64,000 nt of DNA from Mesorhizobium sp. ORS 3359. GTDB lineage: Bacteria > Pseudomonadota > Alphaproteobacteria > Rhizobiales > Rhizobiaceae. Location of the stretch: contig CCNC01000185.1 in assembly GCA_000824845.1 (NCBI GenBank), forward strand, positions 1 to 64,000, read 5' to 3'. Below the pieces are notes generated by a model, which saw only the letters and a program-made list of their open reading frames with translations, was not told the DNA's origin and did no database searches. Position numbers and translations under genes: made by a program. This document shows positions 13,089 through 22,264 of this stretch, piece after piece (within the stretch, counting starts at the first letter, position 1; every line of letters begins with the position of its first letter).

Positions 13089-13871
13089 CTAAGCCATTTC
13101 GGGGCGCCTGGAGGCCTCGCGAATGGCTTTGTGGATATTGCGCTGCAGGTCCATGAAAGCAGCGCTCTCCATGACCTCCTCGCGGCGCGGGCGATCGATG
13201 TCGACGTCAAAAGTCCGCATGATGCGCCCCGGGCCGATGCCCATCACGACAATGCGGTCCGACAGATAGACGGCCTCTTCGACGTCGTGGGTGACGAAGA
13301 GCACGGTCAGCCTGTGCTCCTCCCAGATCTGGGTGAGCAGCTCCTGCATCTGATGCCTGGTCAGGGCATCGAGCGCACCGAAAGGCTCGTCCATCAAGAG
13401 CATCTTGGGGCGGTAGGAAAGCGCGCGCGCAATGGCGACGCGCTGCTTCATGCCGCCCGACAGTTCGGATGGATAGAGATTGGCCGAATGCGGGAGCTTG
13501 ACCAGGTCGAGATGTTCAAGCGCGATCCTGCGGCAGGTGGCGCGGTCATGGCCGGCGGCCTTGAGAGCGAACTCGATGTTCTGCTGCGCCGTCAGCCAGG
13601 GCAGCAGCGTATAGGACTGGAAGACGACGCCGCGATCGAGACCCGGCTTCAGGATCGGCGATCCGTCGATGTCGAGCTCGCCCGCGTCGAAATCCTGCAG
13701 TCCGGCGACGATCGACAGCAGCGTGCTCTTGCCGCAGCCCGACGTGCCGACCAGCGACACGAACTCGTTGTCGGCGAGGTCGAGATTGATGTCGCGCAGC
13801 ACTTCGGTGCGCCGCGCTCCGGTGCCGAAACTCTTGTGAAGGCCCTTGATGCGCAGTTTTGGGGAATTCAT
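13089..13871 (-). CDS. ABC importer ATPase, SsuB/TauB type
   Basis: A 260-residue ATP-binding subunit of a nitrate/sulfonate/taurine-type importer. Walker A GTSGCGKSTLL, signature LSGGMKQRVAIARAL, Walker B MLLMDEPFGALD and the switch His in LFVTHDVEEA are all intact. Third gene of the SBP-permease-ATPase operon, 13 bp after the permease. The operon reads from a promoter carrying a 19-bp repeat shared with the adjacent dehydrogenase genes. The substrate is therefore likely the compound those enzymes oxidise. Confidence 0.93.
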   Translation of the reverse strand: MNSPKLRIKGLHKSFGTGARRTEVLRDINLDLADNEFVSLVGTSGCGKSTLLSIVAGLQDFDAGELDIDGSPILKPGLDRGVVFQSYTLLPWLTAQQNIEFALKAAGHDRATCRRIALEHLDLVKLPHSANLYPSELSGGMKQRVAIARALSYRPKMLLMDEPFGALDALTRHQMQELLTQIWEEHRLTVLFVTHDVEEAVYLSDRIVVMGIGPGRIMRTFDVDIDRPRREEVMESAAFMDLQRNIHKAIREASRRPEMA

Positions 13872-13884
13872 CGGCCGGGCCTCG

Positions 13885-14763
13885 TCATGAACGGCTGTCC
13901 TGGCGGAACAGCACCTTGCCCAGCGCCTTCATGACCTGGTCGGTGATCAGGCCGAGGATGCCGAGCAGAAGGATGTAGCCGATGATGGTGTTGGTCTGGA
14001 AATAGCGCTGCGAGACGGTGATGCGATAGCCCAGGCCGGACGTCGCAGCGACGAGCTCGGCCAGCACCAGCCAGGTCCAGGCCCAGCCCAGGCTGATGCG
14101 CAACGTATCCCAGATGCCCGGCAAGGCGCTGGGCACCACGATGCGCGTCAGGATCTTGCGGTCCGGCAGGCCGAGCGTCCGGCCGAGACCGACGAAGTCG
14201 GCCGGCACGCGCTTGACGTTGTCCATGATCATCAGCACCTGCTGGAAGAAGGTGCCGATGAAGATGATCAGGAATTTCTGGACGTCGCTCGTGCCCGCCC
14301 ACAGGATGGAGAGCGGCACGAAGGCGACGACCGGCATATAGCGGATGAAATCGACCAGCGGCTCGATGGCCGCTTCCCAGGTCCGGAAGCCGCCGATCAG
14401 CACGCCGATCGGAATGGCGAGCGCCGAGGCGATGAGAAAGCCGACCGAAATACGGTAGATCGAGGCCTCGAGATCGGTGAGCAGCGTGCCGTCGGCCCAG
14501 AGCTTGCCAAGCTGCGTCGCCACGCTGGCGGGCGACGGCAGGAAGATCGGCTTGACCAGGTCGAGGGCCGTCGCCGCCCACCAGGCGAGGCCGAGACCGG
14601 CAAAGACGGCCACGGCGATGATCAGGAAGCGGGAGCGCGCGATGGGCGCGCCGATCCCGGAGGAGCGGCGACGGCGCATCGCCTGCCTGGCGGCAGGTCC
14701 CGTCGCCGGGCCAGGCGCGCTCGCTTTGCCGACAGGCTCGTCGGGCATCTCGGCGGCCGCCAC
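13885..14763 (-). CDS. ABC importer permease, SsuC/TauC type
   Basis: A 292-residue inner-membrane permease with a long cytoplasmic N-terminus rich in Ala, Pro and Arg, then about six membrane helices. The conserved BPD_transp_1 loop is visible near GLGRTLGLPDRKILTRIVVP, the EAA-like contact with the ATPase. The C-terminus TDQVMKALGKVLFRQD is typical of the SsuC/TauC group. Lies 8 bp downstream of the binding-protein gene and 13 bp before the ATPase gene. Confidence 0.92.
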   Translation of the reverse strand: MAAAEMPDEPVGKASAPGPATGPAARQAMRRRRSSGIGAPIARSRFLIIAVAVFAGLGLAWWAATALDLVKPIFLPSPASVATQLGKLWADGTLLTDLEASIYRISVGFLIASALAIPIGVLIGGFRTWEAAIEPLVDFIRYMPVVAFVPLSILWAGTSDVQKFLIIFIGTFFQQVLMIMDNVKRVPADFVGLGRTLGLPDRKILTRIVVPSALPGIWDTLRISLGWAWTWLVLAELVAATSGLGYRITVSQRYFQTNTIIGYILLLGILGLITDQVMKALGKVLFRQDSRS

Positions 14764-14771
14764 GAACCGGC

Positions 14772-15776
14772 CTACTGCGCGGCCTTAACGAAGGCCGGAT
14801 CGATCATCTGCTCCGGCGTCACGTCGGCCTGAAGCAGCCCGGCATTCTTGGCGGCGGCCTGGACGTCGGCGAATGTCTTGGTGGAAAAATCGCCTGTCAG
14901 CGCGCTCTTGTTCTCGGCAAGGGAATAGTAGCGCACGCCGTCGAAGGCGGTGTTGAGGTCCTCGACGCTCGAGCCGACCGCCTTGGAGATGATGGCGCGG
15001 CCGCCGGGCGTGTCGGCATTGTAGTCCTTGAGCGCGGCATCCCAGGCCTTGATCATGGCAAGCACCTGGCCGGGCCGCGACTTGATCACCTCGTCGCGCA
15101 CCACCAGCACGTCGCTGATCAGGCCGGGATCCTCGCCGGCGGTGAACAGAAGCTTGACGTCCTTGTTCTGCGCCCTGGCCGTGGTGAGATAGGGCTCATA
15201 AGTGACCGCGACCGGGACGCGGCCGGCAATCAGCGCGCTGCCGGCATCCGCCGCCGGCATCGGCACCGGCTGGACGTCGGCAATCGACATGCCGTTCTTG
15301 GCCAGCGCATATTTCAGCAGGATGTCGCTGGTCGTGCCTTCCTCGAAGGCGACCTGCTTGCCCTTGAGATCGGCGACCGAGTTGACGTCCTTGCCGGCGA
15401 TCATGGCGTCGGCCGTCATCGAGACGTCGAGCAGCAGCACGATCTTGACCGGCAGGCCGGCCGCAACCATGCCCATGGCGGTGTGGGTGGCGATGTTCGC
15501 CGCATCGAGCTGGCCGCTCGCCAAGGCGGCATTGATGTCCTTGTCCTCGGTGAAGTTGACGATCTGGACGTCCGACAGACCGCTCGCCTTGAACAGACCC
15601 TTGACTTCGGCGACATGCCACTGGCCGTAGCCCAGCCATGGCTCAATGCCGATCTTGAACGATCCGGCCTCGGGCGTCGCGGGAATGGCCGTATCGGCGG
15701 CGTGGGCCAGCGGGGCGAAGCCGAGGGCGGCCGCCATCACGAGCGAACGGAATTGTCCTGTGAGGTTACGCATCAT
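14772..15776 (-). CDS. periplasmic binding protein, SsuA/TauA/NMT1-like
   Basis: A 334-residue solute-binding protein with a signal peptide (MMRNLTGQFRSLVMAAALGF, cleavage near AHA-ADT). The first beta strand and loop IGIEPWLGYGQWHVAEVKGL and the FEEGTTSDILLKYAL motif match the nitrate/sulfonate/taurine-binding family. ATG 15776 has GGGGA six bases upstream; the open extension to 15887 is not coding-like. First gene of the importer operon, with a 19-bp operator copy at 15924-15942 in its promoter region. A sulfonate is the favoured ligand by family and context. Confidence 0.92.
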   Translation of the reverse strand: MMRNLTGQFRSLVMAAALGFAPLAHAADTAIPATPEAGSFKIGIEPWLGYGQWHVAEVKGLFKASGLSDVQIVNFTEDKDINAALASGQLDAANIATHTAMGMVAAGLPVKIVLLLDVSMTADAMIAGKDVNSVADLKGKQVAFEEGTTSDILLKYALAKNGMSIADVQPVPMPAADAGSALIAGRVPVAVTYEPYLTTARAQNKDVKLLFTAGEDPGLISDVLVVRDEVIKSRPGQVLAMIKAWDAALKDYNADTPGGRAIISKAVGSSVEDLNTAFDGVRYYSLAENKSALTGDFSTKTFADVQAAAKNAGLLQADVTPEQMIDPAFVKAAQ

Positions 15777-15923
15777 CTTTGTTCCCCTTGATGATTCAGA
15801 GCGCTTTTTTGAGCCAAACTTCCTGTCTGGCGAGAATGCGGCTTCTGCTTCTTGCGGCACTGTGCCTCGGCGTCTTACCTGCCACAATATTCAACGTCGG
15901 CGGCGATGGATGTCAAGGCTAAA

Positions 15924-15942
15924 ATACATACATGCATATACA
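15924..15942 (+). promoter_or_regulatory. 19-bp operator copy A, upstream of the ABC importer operon
   Basis: ATACATACATGCATATACA. It lies about 150 bp upstream of the binding-protein start, between that gene and the 3' end of the GntR regulator gene, in an A/T-rich patch. The same sequence recurs with one change at 20086-20104 and, on the opposite strand with two changes, at 19176-19194. The shape (alternating TATAC/GTATA) resembles HutC-subfamily GntR operators. Confidence 0.75.
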
Positions 15943-16029
15943 AGCTGGAGGCGCTGATTTCCGCGCTCTTGGCAGCATTTGGGCAGGCTCCACTCGTAAC
16001 TGGCGCCATGGGGAATAGTCCCGGCCGCT

Positions 16030-16761
16030 TCAGGTCTTGCGCGACGGAGAATAGCGGCTGCCGAGCGAGTAGCGGCTGCCGACATAGGTCAGTTTGCTGA
16101 TGGTGGCGACGACCGCGCCGGTCCATGTCCGGCGATGCAGGAGAAGGCAGCAGTCGCCGACGTTGATGGCCAGATGCCGCGCGGTCTCGGCATCGGCCGG
16201 GACAGCGGAAATGATGTGTTCGACCTCGGTCACCGGCGTCTTCTGCATCAGGTAATCATAGGTCGCCGTCTTGGAGAAATCTTGCTTGTCATAGTCGGGT
16301 ATCAGGCTCGGGTTGACGAAGCGCTCTTCCAGTTGGACAGGCAGGTCATTCTCGAAATTGACGACCACCGAATGATAGACAGCAGTGCGCTTGGCGAATT
16401 CGAAGGACAGCGAGAGCTCCTTGGTCGGCGTGATTTTTTCGAGGACGAGAACCTCGGAGCGATGCCTGTTGCCGCGCGCGACGATCTCGGCCGCGATGTT
16501 GTTGATCTCGATCAGCGTCGATTGTGGCTTTGGCGGCGCGATGAATGTCCCCACGCCCTGCAACCGGATCAGGAAGCCGGCCGAGGTCAGTTCCCGCAAG
16601 GCGCGGTGGACGGTCATGCGCGACACGCCGAGCGCGGCCACGAATTCATTCTCGGACGGCAGCTTGCTGTCCTTGGTCCACTTGCCGGTTCCGATGTTGG
16701 TCAGGATATAGTCCTTGACCTTCTCGTAGAGGGGGCTGGCCGTATCGGGCAAAGCACTCAT
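16030..16761 (-). CDS. HutC-subfamily GntR transcriptional regulator
   Basis: A 243-residue repressor: GntR winged helix (PLYEKVKDYILTNIGTG, then KLPSENEFVAALGVSRMTVH and the wing GFLIRLQGVGTFIA) followed by a UTRA ligand domain (residues ~95-235). It ends in a short duplication GSRYSL-GSRYSP. It closely resembles histidine-utilisation repressors in layout, but no hut gene lies nearby. Third gene of the hisD-adh-gntR unit, 31 bp after the alcohol dehydrogenase. It is the best candidate for binding the three 19-bp repeats here, giving autoregulation. Confidence 0.92.
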   Translation of the reverse strand: MSALPDTASPLYEKVKDYILTNIGTGKWTKDSKLPSENEFVAALGVSRMTVHRALRELTSAGFLIRLQGVGTFIAPPKPQSTLIEINNIAAEIVARGNRHRSEVLVLEKITPTKELSLSFEFAKRTAVYHSVVVNFENDLPVQLEERFVNPSLIPDYDKQDFSKTATYDYLMQKTPVTEVEHIISAVPADAETARHLAINVGDCCLLLHRRTWTGAVVATISKLTYVGSRYSLGSRYSPSRKT

Positions 16762-16792
16762 TTCAAAAGTCCTTTCCGGCGAACATCGGAAA

Positions 16793-17815
16793 TCAGGTGC
16801 CGGCAGGCTGCCGCAGCCGGATAATGGTTTTCAAGCCGTCGCCCTGCCCCGCCAGAAGACGCTCATAAGCGGCGGGAATATCATCCAGGCCGATCTCGCG
16901 ATCGATCAGGCTGATCAGCGGTCCGGACAGCTCCGCCAGCATCCCGATGGCGTCGGGCAGCTCATCGGCAAAGGCATGGCAGCCCAGCAGACCGATCTCG
17001 CGCTCGACCAGCATGTTGGGGTTGATGTCGAGGCGGCCGTGGAAAATGCCGACCAGCGCGACGGTGGCGCCGGAACCCAGAACACCCAGCAGCTGGTTGA
17101 GCGCGGCGATGCTGCCGGTGGCCTCGACGGCCGCAAGCAGAGGCGCGTCGGTGGTCGCGGCGGCAATGGCCTCGCGGTCGAGATCGACGATGGTGGCGCC
17201 GGTCACCCGGGCGACCCGCTCGCAGCGCGCCTTGTTGCGGTCGGCGATCAGCACCCTGCCCGGGAACGTCCGCGACAAAAGCAGCGCCGTCAGGCCGCCG
17301 ATGGTGCCGCAGCCGACGACAAGCACCGAACCCGCGGTCTTCGGCAGGCGCCGCACGGCATGCAGCGCGACGGCGAGCGGCTCGGCCATCGCCGCCACTC
17401 TTTCATCGAGCGCGGCGTCGATGACATGCAGCAGGCGCGCCGGCAGCACCGTCTCCTCGGCAAAGCCGCCGTCGCATATTTCGCCGACGAAGCCCAGCGA
17501 GGCGCACAGATGCCGCCTGCCCGCGCGGCATTGCGCGCATTCCCCGCACCAGAAGCGGGAATCGGCGACGACCCGGTCGCCCACGGCGACGGTATCGACG
17601 CCCGCGCCGACCGCGACCACCGTGCCTGTCAATTCATGGCCGGCCGTCGACGGCGCGCGGCTTATCCATTGTCCGGTGCGGAAATTGTGGAGGTCGGAGC
17701 CGCAGATGCCGGCGGCGTCGACATTGAGCTTCACCCAGCCCGCCTCGGGAGCCCCCGGCGCGGCGACATCCTCGACGCGCAGGTCGCCGGGTCCATGCAG
17801 TCTGGCGGCCTTCAT
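16793..17815 (-). CDS. zinc-dependent medium-chain alcohol dehydrogenase
   Basis: A 340-residue MDR dehydrogenase. Catalytic zinc region GICGSDLHNF and GHELTG; structural zinc cysteines CGECAQCRAGRRHLC; nucleotide-binding GCGTIGGLTALL. It begins 12 bp after the HisD-like gene and precedes the GntR gene, all on one transcript. In known 2,3-dihydroxypropane-1-sulfonate catabolism, a HisD-type enzyme works with C2-dehydrogenases that interconvert stereoisomers; this protein could do that job. Substrate not proven. Confidence 0.9.
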   Translation of the reverse strand: MKAARLHGPGDLRVEDVAAPGAPEAGWVKLNVDAAGICGSDLHNFRTGQWISRAPSTAGHELTGTVVAVGAGVDTVAVGDRVVADSRFWCGECAQCRAGRRHLCASLGFVGEICDGGFAEETVLPARLLHVIDAALDERVAAMAEPLAVALHAVRRLPKTAGSVLVVGCGTIGGLTALLLSRTFPGRVLIADRNKARCERVARVTGATIVDLDREAIAAATTDAPLLAAVEATGSIAALNQLLGVLGSGATVALVGIFHGRLDINPNMLVEREIGLLGCHAFADELPDAIGMLAELSGPLISLIDREIGLDDIPAAYERLLAGQGDGLKTIIRLRQPAGT

Positions 17816-17827
17816 CGCGCCGGCCCG

Positions 17828-19150
17828 TCAGGCGCCGAGATAGCGGTCGCGGATTTCCGAGACCGCGTTCTCGTGCGAGCTGAAGCCCTCGTAGCGGGCA
17901 AGCCTGCGGGCATGGCCGGCAAGCTCCGGATAGGCCGCCGAGGTCACATAACCGACCGACGAACGTTTCAGGAAATCCGTCACTGAAAGCGGCCCGTAAG
18001 TGCGCGCCCAGCGGCTGGTCGGCAGCACCGCATTCGGCCCGAGGACGAAATTGGCGAGCGTCACCGGCGTGTGCGGACCCATGAGGATCTCGGCCGCCTC
18101 GGTGATGTGGCCGAGATGCGCGAACGGTTCCCTGGACAGGATCTCGAGGTGTTCGGGCGCATAGTCGTTGATGAAGCGGTAGCTGTCCTCCAGTGACGCG
18201 GTCAGCACGATGCCGCCGCGCTTGCCGGTGAGCACCGCGCGCGAGAACTCGACCCGCTGCTCGGTCATACGGGACCAATGGTCGGGAAGTGCTGCCAGGG
18301 CCGCGTCGGCGACCTTGCGGCTGTGGGTCACGAGATAGGCGGAAGAGTCCGGTCCGTGCTCGGCCTCGATCAGAAGGTCGAGCGCGGCGAGGCCGCCGTC
18401 GACGCTGTCGTCGGCGAAGATGATCGCTTCCGACGGTCCGGCCGGAAGGCCGGTGTCGATGATCGACGACAGCAGGCTCTTGGCCGCCACAACCCAAGGG
18501 CTGCCTGGGCCGACGATCTTGAGCGCGGGCTTCACCGTCTCGGTGCCGTAGGCGACGGCCGCGACCGCATGCGCGCCGCCGCATTTGTAGACGGTCTCGA
18601 CCCCGGCGAGCCGAGCGGCGACCAGGGTCGCGGCATCGACGGAACCGTCCGCGGTCGGCGGCGTCACGATGGCGATCTGCGGCACGCCGGCGATGACGGC
18701 CGGAACCGAGGTCATCATCGTCACAGACGGGAAGGCGCCCTTGCCGCGCGGGACGTAGAGCGCGACCGAGCCGATCGGCGTGTAACGGTCGCCGGCATAG
18801 GCGCCGGGGCGGACTTCCTTGAGCCACATCGTCTCGGGACGCTGCTCCTCGTGGAAATGCCTGATGTTTGTGATGCCGAAGCGGATGCTGTCGATGACAT
18901 CCTTGTCGACCTTGCCGAAGGCCGCGTCGAACTCAGCCTCCGAGACTTTCAGATTGCCCGCGGCCACATCGGCCTTGTCCAGATCCTTGACGAAGCGGAG
19001 CAGGGCCGCGTCGCCTTCGGTCCGGACCGCCTCGAGGATCGGACGGACCTTCTCGACGAAGACCGAGAGGTCGGCTTCGGCGCGCTTCAGCAGGCTCGCC
19101 CGCTGTTCGGCGCTGGCGGATGAGAGGTCGTGGAAGCTGATCTCGGACAT
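17828..19150 (-). CDS. HisD-family dehydrogenase, candidate sulfopropanediol 3-dehydrogenase
   Basis: A 440-residue histidinol-dehydrogenase-fold protein: KSLLSSIIDTGLPAGPSEAI, AEHGPDSSAYLVTHS and YAPEHLEIL carry the family's substrate and zinc positions. No histidine biosynthesis gene is near; instead it clusters with an SDR, a zinc dehydrogenase and a sulfonate-type ABC importer. HisD paralogues in such settings include HpsN, which oxidises 2,3-dihydroxypropane-1-sulfonate to sulfolactate. Start ATG 19150 has AGGAG upstream, and a 19-bp operator lies just beyond. True HisD remains a less likely alternative. Confidence 0.85.
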   Translation of the reverse strand: MSEISFHDLSSASAEQRASLLKRAEADLSVFVEKVRPILEAVRTEGDAALLRFVKDLDKADVAAGNLKVSEAEFDAAFGKVDKDVIDSIRFGITNIRHFHEEQRPETMWLKEVRPGAYAGDRYTPIGSVALYVPRGKGAFPSVTMMTSVPAVIAGVPQIAIVTPPTADGSVDAATLVAARLAGVETVYKCGGAHAVAAVAYGTETVKPALKIVGPGSPWVVAAKSLLSSIIDTGLPAGPSEAIIFADDSVDGGLAALDLLIEAEHGPDSSAYLVTHSRKVADAALAALPDHWSRMTEQRVEFSRAVLTGKRGGIVLTASLEDSYRFINDYAPEHLEILSREPFAHLGHITEAAEILMGPHTPVTLANFVLGPNAVLPTSRWARTYGPLSVTDFLKRSSVGYVTSAAYPELAGHARRLARYEGFSSHENAVSEIRDRYLGA

Positions 19151-19175
19151 GGCTGCTCCTCAGAAACGCGGGAAA

Positions 19176-19194
19176 AGTATATACATGTATGTAT
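19176..19194 (-). promoter_or_regulatory. 19-bp operator copy B, upstream of the hisD-like operon
   Basis: Reads ATACATACATGTATATACT on the minus strand, two differences from copy A at 15924. It lies 25 bp upstream of the HisD-like start codon and contains the perfect palindrome ATACATGTAT. It sits between the SDR stop and the hisD-like start, implying that hisD-adh-gntR has its own promoter. Confidence 0.75.
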
Positions 19195-19252
19195 AATGGT
19201 CGCCAGTATTTTTCTGCGTCCTCCGGGCGGAACCCGGCCACGGCAAACCGCA

Positions 19253-20026
19253 TCAGATCGAGGCAAGAAAGCCCCCATCCACCGGAAAGCACTGCCCGGT
19301 GATGTAGGCCGAGGCGTCCGAGGCCAGGAAGACCGCAATTCCGTGCAGATCCGTAAGGTCGCCGAAGCGATGCTGCGGGATCTTGGCGAGCATCGATTGC
19401 TGCCACGCCTCGTCGGCGTAGAACACCTCGGTCATCGCCGTCCTGAAATAGCCGGGCGCAATCGCATTGACCCTGATCCCGAGACCCGCCCACTCCGCTG
19501 CAAGGGCCCGCGTCATGCCGAGCAGGCCCGACTTCGACGAGCCGTAGGGCACGGCCGTGGGTATGCCGACCTCGGAGGTCAGCGAGCACAAATTGATGAT
19601 GGCGCCGGGCCGTCCGGCATCGCGCATGTGGCGGGCGGCGGCCTGGGCGCAGAAGAAGGCGCCCTTGAGATTGGTGTCGACGATCCGGTCCCAGAGCGCT
19701 TCATCGACATCAAGCGAAGGCCTGACCTCTTCCATGCCGGCATTGTTGACCAGGATATCGAGACCGCCAAGCAGGTTGGCTGCCTCGGCGGTCGCGGCGC
19801 GGCAGCGGGCGACGTCGGTGACGTCAAGGGCAATGGCATGTGCAACGCCACCGGCGGCCCGGATCGCCTCCGTCGTCTCTCCGAGCGAAGCAAGGCTGCG
19901 CGCCGTGACGGCGACAGCGGCGCCGGCCGCACTCAGCGCCTCGGCGATGCCGCGCCCGATGCCGCGACTGGCGCCGGTGACGAGCGCCTTCCTGCCCGAC
20001 AGGTCGAAGAGGGAAGCATTGCGCAT
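19253..20026 (-). CDS. short-chain dehydrogenase/reductase
   Basis: A 257-residue classical SDR: cofactor motif TGASRGIGRG, NNAG, catalytic Ser in NLCSLTSEVG and Y-x3-K in YGSSKSGLLGMTRALA, and C-terminal ITGQCFPVDGGF. Expected to oxidise a secondary alcohol with NAD(P). It has its own promoter region with operator copy C and stands 102 bp before the hisD-like gene on the same strand. By analogy with sulfopropanediol catabolism it could be the second C2-dehydrogenase (HpsO-like), an inference from neighbours. Confidence 0.92.
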   Translation of the reverse strand: MRNASLFDLSGRKALVTGASRGIGRGIAEALSAAGAAVAVTARSLASLGETTEAIRAAGGVAHAIALDVTDVARCRAATAEAANLLGGLDILVNNAGMEEVRPSLDVDEALWDRIVDTNLKGAFFCAQAAARHMRDAGRPGAIINLCSLTSEVGIPTAVPYGSSKSGLLGMTRALAAEWAGLGIRVNAIAPGYFRTAMTEVFYADEAWQQSMLAKIPQHRFGDLTDLHGIAVFLASDASAYITGQCFPVDGGFLASI

Positions 20027-20085
20027 ATGATCCTCCTTGGCCTTGCCGGCCTGCCCTCGCCCGCGAGACTAACCGATCCTTGGTT

Positions 20086-20104
20086 ATACATACAAGCATA
20101 TACA
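20086..20104 (+). promoter_or_regulatory. 19-bp operator copy C, upstream of the SDR gene
   Basis: ATACATACAAGCATATACA, one difference from copy A. It lies 60 bp upstream of the SDR start codon in the 192-bp gap before the flavin oxidoreductase gene ends. The gap otherwise holds no gene. With copies A and B it marks three transcription units of one small regulon. Confidence 0.75.
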
Positions 20105-20218: not shown

Positions 20219-22264
20219 TCAGATCCTGATCCCGAACCGGATGCCGTCATAGATTGCGGCGTGGATGTTGCGCGATGCGACCGCGTCGCCGATGCGGAAC
20301 AGCACGAAGCCGCCGTCGGCATTGCGGGATGGGAATATGTCGCCGCCCTTCACCAGCCGCTCATAGTCGACCGCGCCGCCATTCTTCGACAGCGGTTTGA
20401 GCGACAGATAAAGATCGTCGAGCGGCGCCGTGCCATGCTCGACCACCACCTGGTCGACACGCCTTTCGCCGCGCCAGCCGCCGGCAAAATCCGAAGCGAG
20501 CTCGGCGACGAGCTGGTTGCCCTCGCGCCGCACCGAACGCAGGCGGGTGTTGATGGTGACGGCGACGCCCCTTTCGTGGAAGGCGCGCATATAGGGCACG
20601 TGGTTCATGCCGCCCATTTCCGGCGCGAAGAAGCGTTCCGGCGAGACCAGCTCCAGCTTCGAGCCGCTGTTGGCAATGAGCTCGGCGGCGCCCATGCCCT
20701 GATGGCCGCCATTGTCGTCGTAAAGCAGGACATTCTCGGCCGGTTTGACGCTGCCGGCCATGATGTCCCAGCTCGAGGTGACGAGATTGTCGCCGGCGTT
20801 CAGCGACGGGTTCTGGGGCATGCCGCCCGTCGCCACGATCACCACGTCTGGCGCCAGCGCCAGCACATCGTCCTTCTCGGCCCAGGTGTCGTAGCGTATT
20901 TCGACGCCGAGGCGGTCAAGCTCGGCCAGCCGCCAGTCGATAATGCCGATCAGTTCCTTGCGGCGCGGATTCTGCGTGGCGAGCCGCACCTGCCCGCCTG
21001 CCTGGCTGGAGGCTTCGAGCACCGTCACCTGGTGGCCGCGTTCGGCCGCGACGCGCGCGGCTTCAAGACCACCAGCGCCGGCCCCCACCACCACGACTTT
21101 CTTCATCGGTCCTTCGCTCTTGGCGATAACGTGCGGAATGGTCGCCTCGCGGCCGGTCGCGGCGTTGTGGACGCAAAGCGCTTCGCCGCCTTCATAGATG
21201 CGGTCGAGGCAATAGGTGGCTCCGACGCATGGCCGGATCTCGTGCTCCCGGCCCTCCATCACCTTCTTGACGATATGCGGATCGGCGATATGGGCGCGCG
21301 TCATGCCCACCATGTCGAGCTTGCCGGTGGCGATGGCGTGGCGCGCCGTGGCGACGTCGGAGATGCGCGCGGCGTGGAAGGTCGGGAACTTGGTCGCCGC
21401 CCTCACCTCGCCGGCGAAATCCAGATGCGGGGATGAACGCATGCCGGTCACCGGGATGACCTTGGTCAGCGACGCGTCCGTCTCGATCGTGCCGCGGATG
21501 ATGTTGAGGAAGTCCACCTTGCCGGAATTGGCGAGCCGCCTTGCGATCTCGACGCCCACTTCTTTCGAGATGCCGTTTTCGAGATCTTCGTCGGCTACCA
21601 TGCGAATACCGACGATGAATTTCTCGCCCACGGCGGCGCGGACCGCGTCGAGCACCATGTCGGTGAAGCGCAACCGATTATCGAGCGAGCCGCCGAACTC
21701 GTCGTCGCGATGGTTGGTGAGCGGCGACCAGAAGCCATCCATCAGATGTCCATAGGATTCGAACTCGATGCCGTCGAGGCCGGCCGCCTGGCAGCGCTGC
21801 GCGGCCGAAGCGTAGTCTGCGACGATGCGCTCGATGTCCCATTCCTCGATGGTCTTGGGAAAGGCGCGATGCGCCGGCTCGCGCACCGGCGAAGCCGATA
21901 GCACCGGCAGCCAGTCGGCCTTGTTCCAGCCGGTGCGGCGGCCGAGATGGGTGATCTGGATCATCACCTTGCAGTCATGCTCATGGCAGGCATCGGCAAG
22001 CTCGGCGAGCCAGGGCACGATGCGGTCGTCATAGACATGCAGATTGCCGAAGGCGGCCGGGCTGTCGCGCGAGACGATCGCCGAGCCCGCCGTCATGGTC
22101 AGCGCCATGCCGCCCCTGGCCTTCTCGGCATGGTAGAGCCGGTAGCGCTCCTTCGGCATGCCGTCCTCGGAATAGGCCGGCTCATGGCTGGTCGACATCA
22201 CCCGGTTCTTCAGCGTCAGGTGCTTGAGCTGGTAGGGTTGGAGAAGCGGGTCGTTGCTGGTCAT
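20219..22264 (-). CDS. DgcA/StcD-type NADH:flavin oxidoreductase, probable N-methyl amine demethylase
   Basis: A 681-residue two-part enzyme: an old-yellow-enzyme FMN barrel (residues ~1-360; [30 protein letters not shown]) and an NAD(P)/FAD oxidoreductase half (~390-680; [20 protein letters not shown]). This is the trimethylamine dehydrogenase/DgcA/StcD architecture, whose members demethylate dimethylglycine or N-methylproline. The Fe-S loop reads CVGATYC...C, with Ala where trimethylamine dehydrogenase has its second Cys. RBS AGGAAG precedes ATG 22264. Whether it belongs with the SDR island or with the distant mttB gene is open. Confidence 0.85.

What the first reader, a model, noticed from the sequence alone, without database searches (positions are those of the whole stretch)
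13089..20104. Three-site GntR/HutC regulon joining a sulfonate-type ABC importer to a HisD-like/ADH/SDR oxidation pathway
Sites ATACATACATGCATATACA (15924), its minus-strand variant (19176-19194) and ATACATACAAGCATATACA (20086) stand before the importer operon, the hisD-adh-gntR operon and the sdr gene. All three units and the regulator lie together. HisD-like plus C2-dehydrogenases recall 2,3-dihydroxypropane-1-sulfonate catabolism (HpsN/O/P), here with an ABC importer instead of the better-known transporters. No sulfolactate sulfo-lyase is in the window.
Basis: partly seen in the sequence, partly recalled or inferred. Interest (0 to 1): 0.8.

Follow-up and report, generated by a model that had tools for sequence, protein, structure and literature searches.

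The report
Rhizobial operon likely degrading histidinol
A soil and root bacterium carries a switch-controlled gene set that probably imports and oxidises histidinol (a relative of the amino acid histidine), using an unrecognised third version of the enzyme histidinol dehydrogenase rather than the sulfonate-degrading enzyme first suspected.

Summary
Three near-identical 19-bp sites stand before sdr, hisD-adh-gntR and the importer operon; they are the only matches (up to 3 mismatches) in the 6.86-Mb genome. The core motif recurs before the same genes in relatives, about 270-fold denser there than elsewhere, and resembles a site in the genome's hut operon.

The sulfonate reading fails. The HisD-like protein lacks HpsN's sulfonate-binding His and Lys, forms a separate supported clade, and the genome shows no SuyB and no Xsc over cut-off.

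Instead it belongs to a third class of the HisD family: zinc-ligand Gln is Glu, zinc-ligand Asp is Asn, an active-site His is Ala, in 90 of 90 class members read.

With a HutC-like regulator, HisC-like aminotransferases in 33 of 88 loci and, in one relative, histidine ammonia-lyase beside the module, I read the cluster as histidinol or imidazolyl-C3 catabolism feeding histidine degradation. The substrate is inferred, not shown.

The parts
20086..20104 (.). operator-like site 1, 60 bp upstream of the SDR gene
   Evidence: unique in genome; core motif upstream of SDR in 70 of 81 scored SDR genes (window included)
19253..20026 (-). SDR dehydrogenase (gluconate-5-dehydrogenase-like; best PDB chain 4j2h)
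   Evidence: in 80 of 88 related loci plus the two Klebsiella copies counted apart
19176..19194 (.). operator-like site 2, 26 bp upstream of the hisD-like gene
17828..19150 (-). third-class HisD-family enzyme (signature F-S-E-H-E-H-N-F-A-H at CpHpsN positions 126, 226, 248, 251, 318, 319, 352, 353, 359, 411)
16793..17815 (-). zinc-type alcohol dehydrogenase (Tdh/sorbitol-DH-like)
   Evidence: in 84 of 88 loci plus the two Klebsiella copies counted apart
16030..16761 (-). GntR/HutC-type regulator (GntR + UTRA), 30% identical to the genome's hut-operon HutC
15924..15942 (.). operator-like site 3, 148 bp upstream of the importer operon
   Evidence: core motif upstream of NMT1-type SBP in 41 of 44 (window included)
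14772..15776 (-). NMT1/THI5-type substrate-binding protein; best model SsuA_fam, below its cut-off
13885..14763 (-). ABC permease
13089..13871 (-). ABC ATPase
20219..22264 (-). OYE/NADH:flavin oxidoreductase-type flavoenzyme upstream of the module; beside it in a minority of relatives, so a doubtful member
   Evidence: in L013-L022 (95-98% identical) and at 61% in L073; 11 of 88 loci

Best explanation
A HutC-type repressor encoded in the cluster controls three transcription units through TGTATA[T/G]-type operators. The ABC importer brings in histidinol or a closely related imidazolyl-C3 compound (imidazolyl-propanediol, imidazole-lactate). A third-class HisD-family enzyme oxidises the terminal CH2OH to COOH in two NAD steps. 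The SDR and ADH probably handle the other stereoisomer or C2-oxidised forms, as HpsO/HpsP partner HpsN in the sulfonate pathway. In relatives an alpha-hydroxy acid oxidase and HisC/aromatic aminotransferases convert 2-hydroxy acid to 2-oxo acid to amino acid, giving histidine for the hut pathway. Shown by sequence: the sites, their conservation, gene composition, class signature, displacement pattern. Inferred: substrate, reaction order, repressor binding and inducer.
For: (1) Regulator over the HutC cut-off (274.6 vs 220 bits; two such in the genome). The SRMTV stretch of its helix-turn-helix is shared with the C183 HutC, which lies in a hut operon with ATGTATATACAT in it (hutH confirmed, the names hutI and hutF are my reading of the sequence). 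(2) Operators conserved and mostly tied to the regulator. (3) Signature invariant at ten positions in 90 of 90 rows (88 loci, window, Monoglobus); the 91st row, Nonomuraea, is canonical. (4) Sole-HisD evidence. Genus g104: 11 of 11 genomes have one PF00815 protein, all of this class; in sister genus g117, 5 of 7 genomes were read and are canonical. Family f10, genera g23/g214/g215: 12 of 12 genomes have this class and no canonical HisD was read; of the 5 other genomes, 4 were read and are canonical. 16 of these 23 genomes are at least 90% complete. HisA/HisF-type genes are present in 6 of 6 of them tested; G008 also has a strong HisB. In G402 the only PF00815 protein lies inside the module. 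(5) In G073 the class sits about 4 kb from a divergent HAD-IGPD-IGPD protein and a HisC-like aminotransferase; in Monoglobus it is beside an IGPD-like and a HAD protein. (6) Metarhizobium album has an intact hutH (70% identical, ASGD present) divergent from the module SDR with two operator matches between. (7) HisC-like aminotransferase in 33 of 88 loci, 22 of 33 with a site. (8) Histidinol and imidazolelactate are listed in common-bean root exudates (PMC4192682, passages).
Against: No biochemistry. The changed zinc ligands could mean another substrate. hutH is linked in only 1 of 88 loci. The regulator is just 30% identical to the hut HutC, and four Ancylobacter loci and both Klebsiella modules have neither it nor its operators. 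Simple histidinol oxidation needs neither SDR, ADH, kinase nor hydroxy-acid oxidase. The kinase was not found in the window genome (no positive control in that search), and no aminotransferase or hydroxy-acid oxidase was found beside the window module; these two were not searched genome-wide. The Pot-type SBP of relatives resembles agropine/polyamine binders only weakly. Histidine prototrophy of the sole-copy genomes is assumed; HisA/HisF was not tested in 17 of the 23, G402 among them; 7 of the 23 are under 90% complete, so a canonical hisD could be missing from assembly in some. G408 also has three HisD fragments that I did not read. In the root-exudate paper histidinol was not detected at normal phosphorus on day 10.
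Confidence: 0.5

Rival explanations
1. The module degrades another CH(OH/NH2)-CH2OH compound (an amino alcohol, opine-like or heterocyclic polyol). The enzymes have drifted from a histidinol dehydrogenase ancestor and only look histidine-like.
For: Four active-site substitutions; auxiliary kinase of the APH/MTR-kinase/aminopropanol-kinase fold, SDR, ADH and hydroxy-acid oxidase; two unrelated importer types, NMT1 in 45 and Pot in 34 of 88 loci.
Against: Nearly the same signature is kept by copies that are a genome's only HisD; HutC-like regulator; hutH (1 locus) and HisC-like genes (33 loci) in the module of relatives.
Confidence: 0.33
2. DHPS (2,3-dihydroxypropane-1-sulfonate) catabolism by HpsN/O/P with an ABC importer.
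For: Same three enzyme classes side by side; hydroxy-acid oxidase in some relatives, as in the Leisingera hps cluster; SsuA_fam is the SBP's best model, though under its cut-off.
Against: HpsN's His126 and Lys353 are both Phe; separate clade; SDR and ADH not HpsO/P-like; no Xsc over cut-off and no SuyB. CuyA was not searched.
Confidence: 0.04
3. The gene is simply a second biosynthetic hisD, backing up histidine synthesis.
For: The class appears to serve as sole HisD elsewhere.
Against: In the window genome a HisD with canonical residues exists, and this gene sits in an importer regulon under a HutC-type regulator with conserved operators.
Confidence: 0.05

Closest known systems
HpsN/HpsO/HpsP DHPS pathway (Cupriavidus pinatubonensis, Ruegeria pomeroyi)
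   Same: HisD-family 4-electron alcohol oxidase with SDR and Zn-ADH partners, an importer, and in some loci an alpha-hydroxy acid oxidase
   Different: No sulfonate-binding His/Lys, different clade, no SuyB and no Xsc over cut-off in the genome, HutC regulator, aminotransferases and APH-like kinase in relatives
Canonical histidinol dehydrogenase HisD
   Same: Family; catalytic Glu-His pair and the Zn-ligand histidines at positions 251 and 411 kept; about 35% identity
   Different: Zn-ligand Gln to Glu, Zn-ligand Asp to Asn, active-site His to Ala, Tyr/Leu to Phe; in rhizobia sits in a catabolic-looking regulon
HutC-controlled hut operon
   Same: GntR/UTRA regulator over the HutC model cut-off and a shared operator core
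   Different: Controls an import and dehydrogenase module; no hut enzyme in the window module; regulator only 30% identical to the genome's hut HutC
S. meliloti pSymA SMa0387-SMa0402 (annotated hisC3, potA, hisD2, GntR)
   Same: Same kind of cluster by annotation and order, with Pot-type importer (for another S. meliloti strain; for the SMa genes; the gene-by-gene match is my reading, not tested); SMa genes fall together in a tolC study
   Different: No function reported in the passages seen; known there only as annotation

Membership tests
HpsN (DHPS 3-dehydrogenase) | G-R-Y-A/S-H motif with sulfonate-binding His126 (PMC11382572) | tested here: not met
   Phe at this position in 90 of 90, GKGAF or GKGSF in the class rows printed; positive control: Leisingera HpsN next to comDE reads H...K
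HpsN (DHPS 3-dehydrogenase) | Lys353 contact to the sulfonate | tested here: not met
   Phe at this position in 90 of 90
HpsN (DHPS 3-dehydrogenase) | groups with HpsN in a tree | tested here: not met
   separate clades, 100/99 and 100/100
HpsN (DHPS 3-dehydrogenase) | sulfolactate-processing lyase in the genome (SuyAB, Xsc or CuyA) | tested here: inconclusive
   Xsc best 290.6 vs cut-off 676.4; no SuyB; CuyA not searched
Canonical HisD | Zn ligands Gln-His-Asp-His | tested here: not met
   Glu-His-Asn-His
Canonical HisD | catalytic Glu-His pair | tested here: met
   E318/H319 equivalents in 90 of 90
Canonical HisD | TIGR00069 over cut-off | tested here: met
   420.4 vs 243.8; weak test, since Leisingera HpsN also passes
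Canonical HisD | oxidises L-histidinol | not testable with these tools
   inferred only from sole-copy genomes
HutC | TIGR02018 over cut-off | tested here: met
   274.8 vs 220
HutC | encoded in a hut operon | tested here: not met
   the hut genes with their own HutC are on C183
HutC | urocanate as inducer | not testable with these tools
   -
SsuA/TauA sulfonate importer | SBP over the SsuA_fam or taurine cut-off | tested here: not met
   144.3 vs 163.5; 51.8 vs 304.25

The most novel reading that the evidence does not exclude
A third class of the HisD family, with the carboxylate and amide zinc ligands exchanged (Gln to Glu, Asp to Asn), is a genuine histidinol dehydrogenase. It drives a HutC-controlled histidinol / imidazolyl-C3 utilisation pathway in rhizobia fed by root exudates, is also found on Klebsiella plasmids, and has displaced the canonical biosynthetic HisD in at least two bacterial lineages.
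Probability: 0.42. Interest if true: 0.7.

Novelty: new variant of a known kind. Interest (0 to 1): 0.55.

Why it matters
Genes of this kind are annotated 'histidinol dehydrogenase' (hisD, hisD2), and a sequence-only reader takes them for DHPS degraders. Recognising the third class sharpens both, gives a 10-residue test to tell HisD, HpsN and this class apart, and predicts a specific root-exudate nutrient for rhizobia. A metal site with exchanged Glu/Asn ligands is a natural experiment on a long-studied zinc enzyme, testable by complementing an E. coli hisD deletion.

Tried and rejected
Sulfonate pathway: tested by residues, tree, partner enzymes and two genome-wide lyase searches, and rejected. 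Opine, polyamine or phosphonate substrates were considered from the Pot-type importer of relatives; the PDB and NCBIfam hits are too weak to choose. The AlphaFold model of the SBP was poor (pLDDT 50) and was not used. The kinase model was good (84.5), but its structure matches give only an APH-type fold, at low TM-scores. Unmatched ORFs from 33 chosen loci of the 90 held then were clustered; no cluster spanned more than two loci. This is a weak negative, because the longest-ORF rule often picks antisense frames. A blastn of the E. coli collection found nothing. Nonomuraea L096 was treated as a possible relative; its residues are canonical. Literature: in searches no listed title or abstract opening describes this class or a histidinol-utilisation operon; the listings were capped (40 of 230; 15 of 211), and the library is open-access only. 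I read the abstract and sections 2.3 (part) to 2.8 (with 2.7 in part) of PMC11382572, passages of PMC11131964, PMC4192682, PMC8844928, PMC12542648, PMC2912261, PMC8751395 and PMC10970691, and listings for the rest.

Rows left out: in counts over the 88 loci the window, L095 and L096 are left out; one search scored the 88 loci plus the window; matches of 45% identity or less were not counted, so distant versions are missed. The 88 loci are the best 80 of 175 relatives in a capped scan plus 8 plasmid loci picked from 382 records. G145, G129 (no match), G411 and the three G408 fragments were not read for the signature. In one search the residue numbering was off by one; it was corrected. Labels that come from no call: '4g07 is Brucella' and '8wwe is Ruegeria HpsN' (the PDB listing gives only molecule names); 8v35 as the Cupriavidus enzyme follows PMC11382572.
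Full report
Observation. All three sites exist at the stated places and are the only ones in the genome with up to three mismatches. Gene order on the minus strand is OYE-type flavoenzyme, site, SDR, site, HisD-like, Zn-ADH, GntR/HutC, site, SBP, permease, ATPase.

Relatives. Plasmid searches and one capped genome-contig scan gave 88 loci with the HisD-like gene: 80 (the best of 175) from the scan and 8 chosen from 382 plasmid records. The nearest in the scan are Mesorhizobium. Gene content (Klebsiella copies counted apart): HisD 86 plus 2, ADH 84 plus 2, SDR 80 plus 2, HutC 77, APH-like kinase 39 plus 2, HisC-like aminotransferase 33, alpha-hydroxy acid oxidase 13 plus 2. The importer is NMT1-type in 45, Pot-type in 34 and neither in 9; some loci are short contigs. 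Two Klebsiella plasmids carry a compact version with GhrA, hydroxy-acid oxidase, NMT1-type importer, HisD, kinase, ADH and SDR.

Operator. The core TGTATA[GT][AG]C, chosen after looking at seven of these sequences, is 3.05 per kb upstream of SDR/HisD/importer genes and 0.011 per kb elsewhere (161 in 52.8 kb against 20 in 1,781 kb). HisC-like genes have it in 22 of 33 and plus-strand kinases in 10 of 38. Ancylobacter L056, L071, L083, L089 and the Klebsiella modules, all without this HutC, lack it before module genes. Four loci with HutC show none (L007, L069, L086, L087) and four without it do show it (L012, L048, L062, L072; L048 is a short contig and L012 has another HutC). Many loci are closely related Mesorhizobium, so these are not independent events. 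The contig with the genome's other HutC has ATGTATATACAT between two genes that I read as hutI and hutF; the neighbouring hutH is confirmed.

Enzyme class. In CpHpsN numbering, the canonical HisD rows read Y/L-S/T-Q-H-E-H-D-Y-H, HpsN H-S/T-Q-H-E-H-D-K-H and the window class F-S-E-H-E-H-N-F-A at nine positions, with the tenth, His411, kept in all 90 class rows. The tree of 31 rows puts 13 class members in one clade (100/99) and HpsN plus the C189 type in another (100/100); the root and deeper order are weak.

Why it probably oxidises histidinol. A phylum-wide sample of 398 genomes found the class (E up to 1e-140) in 20: 8 from the window's family, G008, and 11 of one unnamed genus, g104. In g104, 11 of 11 genomes have exactly one PF00815 protein and all read as this class, while in sister genus g117 5 of 7 genomes were read and are canonical, one has a split unread copy and one no match. 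In family f10, 12 of 12 genomes of g23/g214/g215 carry the class and no canonical copy was read (G405 adds one C189-type copy, G408 three unread fragments), while 4 of 5 genomes of other genera were read as canonical. 16 of the 23 are at least 90% complete (5 of 11 and 11 of 12). HisA/HisF-type genes were found in 6 of 6 of these genomes tested. A strong HisB match is in G008; of the five g104 genomes tested, four have only weak IGPD matches (about 25-32 bits) and one (G034) none. In G073 these lie in a HAD-IGPD-IGPD open frame followed by a HisC-like gene near the HisD. Monoglobus shows HisD, IGPD-like and HAD genes side by side. In G402 the single PF00815 protein lies in the module itself; HisA/HisF was not tested there.

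Why catabolism toward histidine. The regulator is HutC-like. In Metarhizobium album an intact hutH takes the place that HisC has elsewhere, divergent from SDR across two operator matches; this is one locus of 88. Aromatic and HisC-type aminotransferases and hydroxy-acid oxidase fit 2-hydroxy acid to 2-oxo acid to amino acid. A tolC study in S. meliloti reports SMa0387, 0391-0396, 0398 and 0402 falling together in a table that also lists ntrB, ntrC and other nitrogen genes (PMC2912261, passages). Histidinol and imidazolelactate appear in a bean root-exudate table; on day 10 histidinol was not detected in plants with normal phosphorus (PMC4192682, passages). A passage of a metabolic-modelling paper says that R. 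leguminosarum bv. trifolii mutants without histidinol dehydrogenase activity form ineffective nodules on clover, without telling which gene (PMC8751395).

Limits. The substrate, repressor binding and reaction order are inferences. The kinase, hydroxy-acid oxidase and ADH/SDR roles are open; the window genome shows no kinase match, though that search had no positive control. CuyA was not searched.

Noticed in passing
L005 1453-2760 (genome contig C189); L136, L138, L135: A further HisD-family group: keeps HpsN's Lys and the Zn ligands read but has Leu/Met instead of the sulfonate-binding His; in this genome it sits with an SDR and a VOC/dioxygenase-like gene (my reading of the sequence). Substrate unknown.
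   Followed up: partly
L008 11183-12475 and 40 homologues: Kinase family of about 430 aa with an HGDAHNANVW loop invariant in the 24 rows aligned, below the Pfam APH cut-off and with no NCBIfam match; AlphaFold model gives an APH / methylthioribose-kinase-type fold.
   Followed up: partly
L112 13971-15914 and 16043-17107; L095 10001-12931: Divergent HAD-IGPD-IGPD protein plus HisC-like gene near the third-class HisD in unnamed genus g104, and HisD, IGPD-like and HAD genes in Monoglobus: possible alternative late histidine-biosynthesis set.
   Followed up: partly
L093 and L094, 5289-16333: The module, without HutC or its operators, lies on two Klebsiella plasmids; one of them (L094) also carries predicted arsenic-resistance genes nearby.
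   Followed up: no
window 20219-22264: OYE-type flavoenzyme co-directional with the module; found beside it in 11 of 88 loci only; its relation to the pathway is unclear.
   Followed up: partly
L012 959-1690: Shinella locus whose module lacks its own HutC but has a second HutC, 52% identical to the Mesorhizobium hut-operon HutC, beside it.
   Followed up: no
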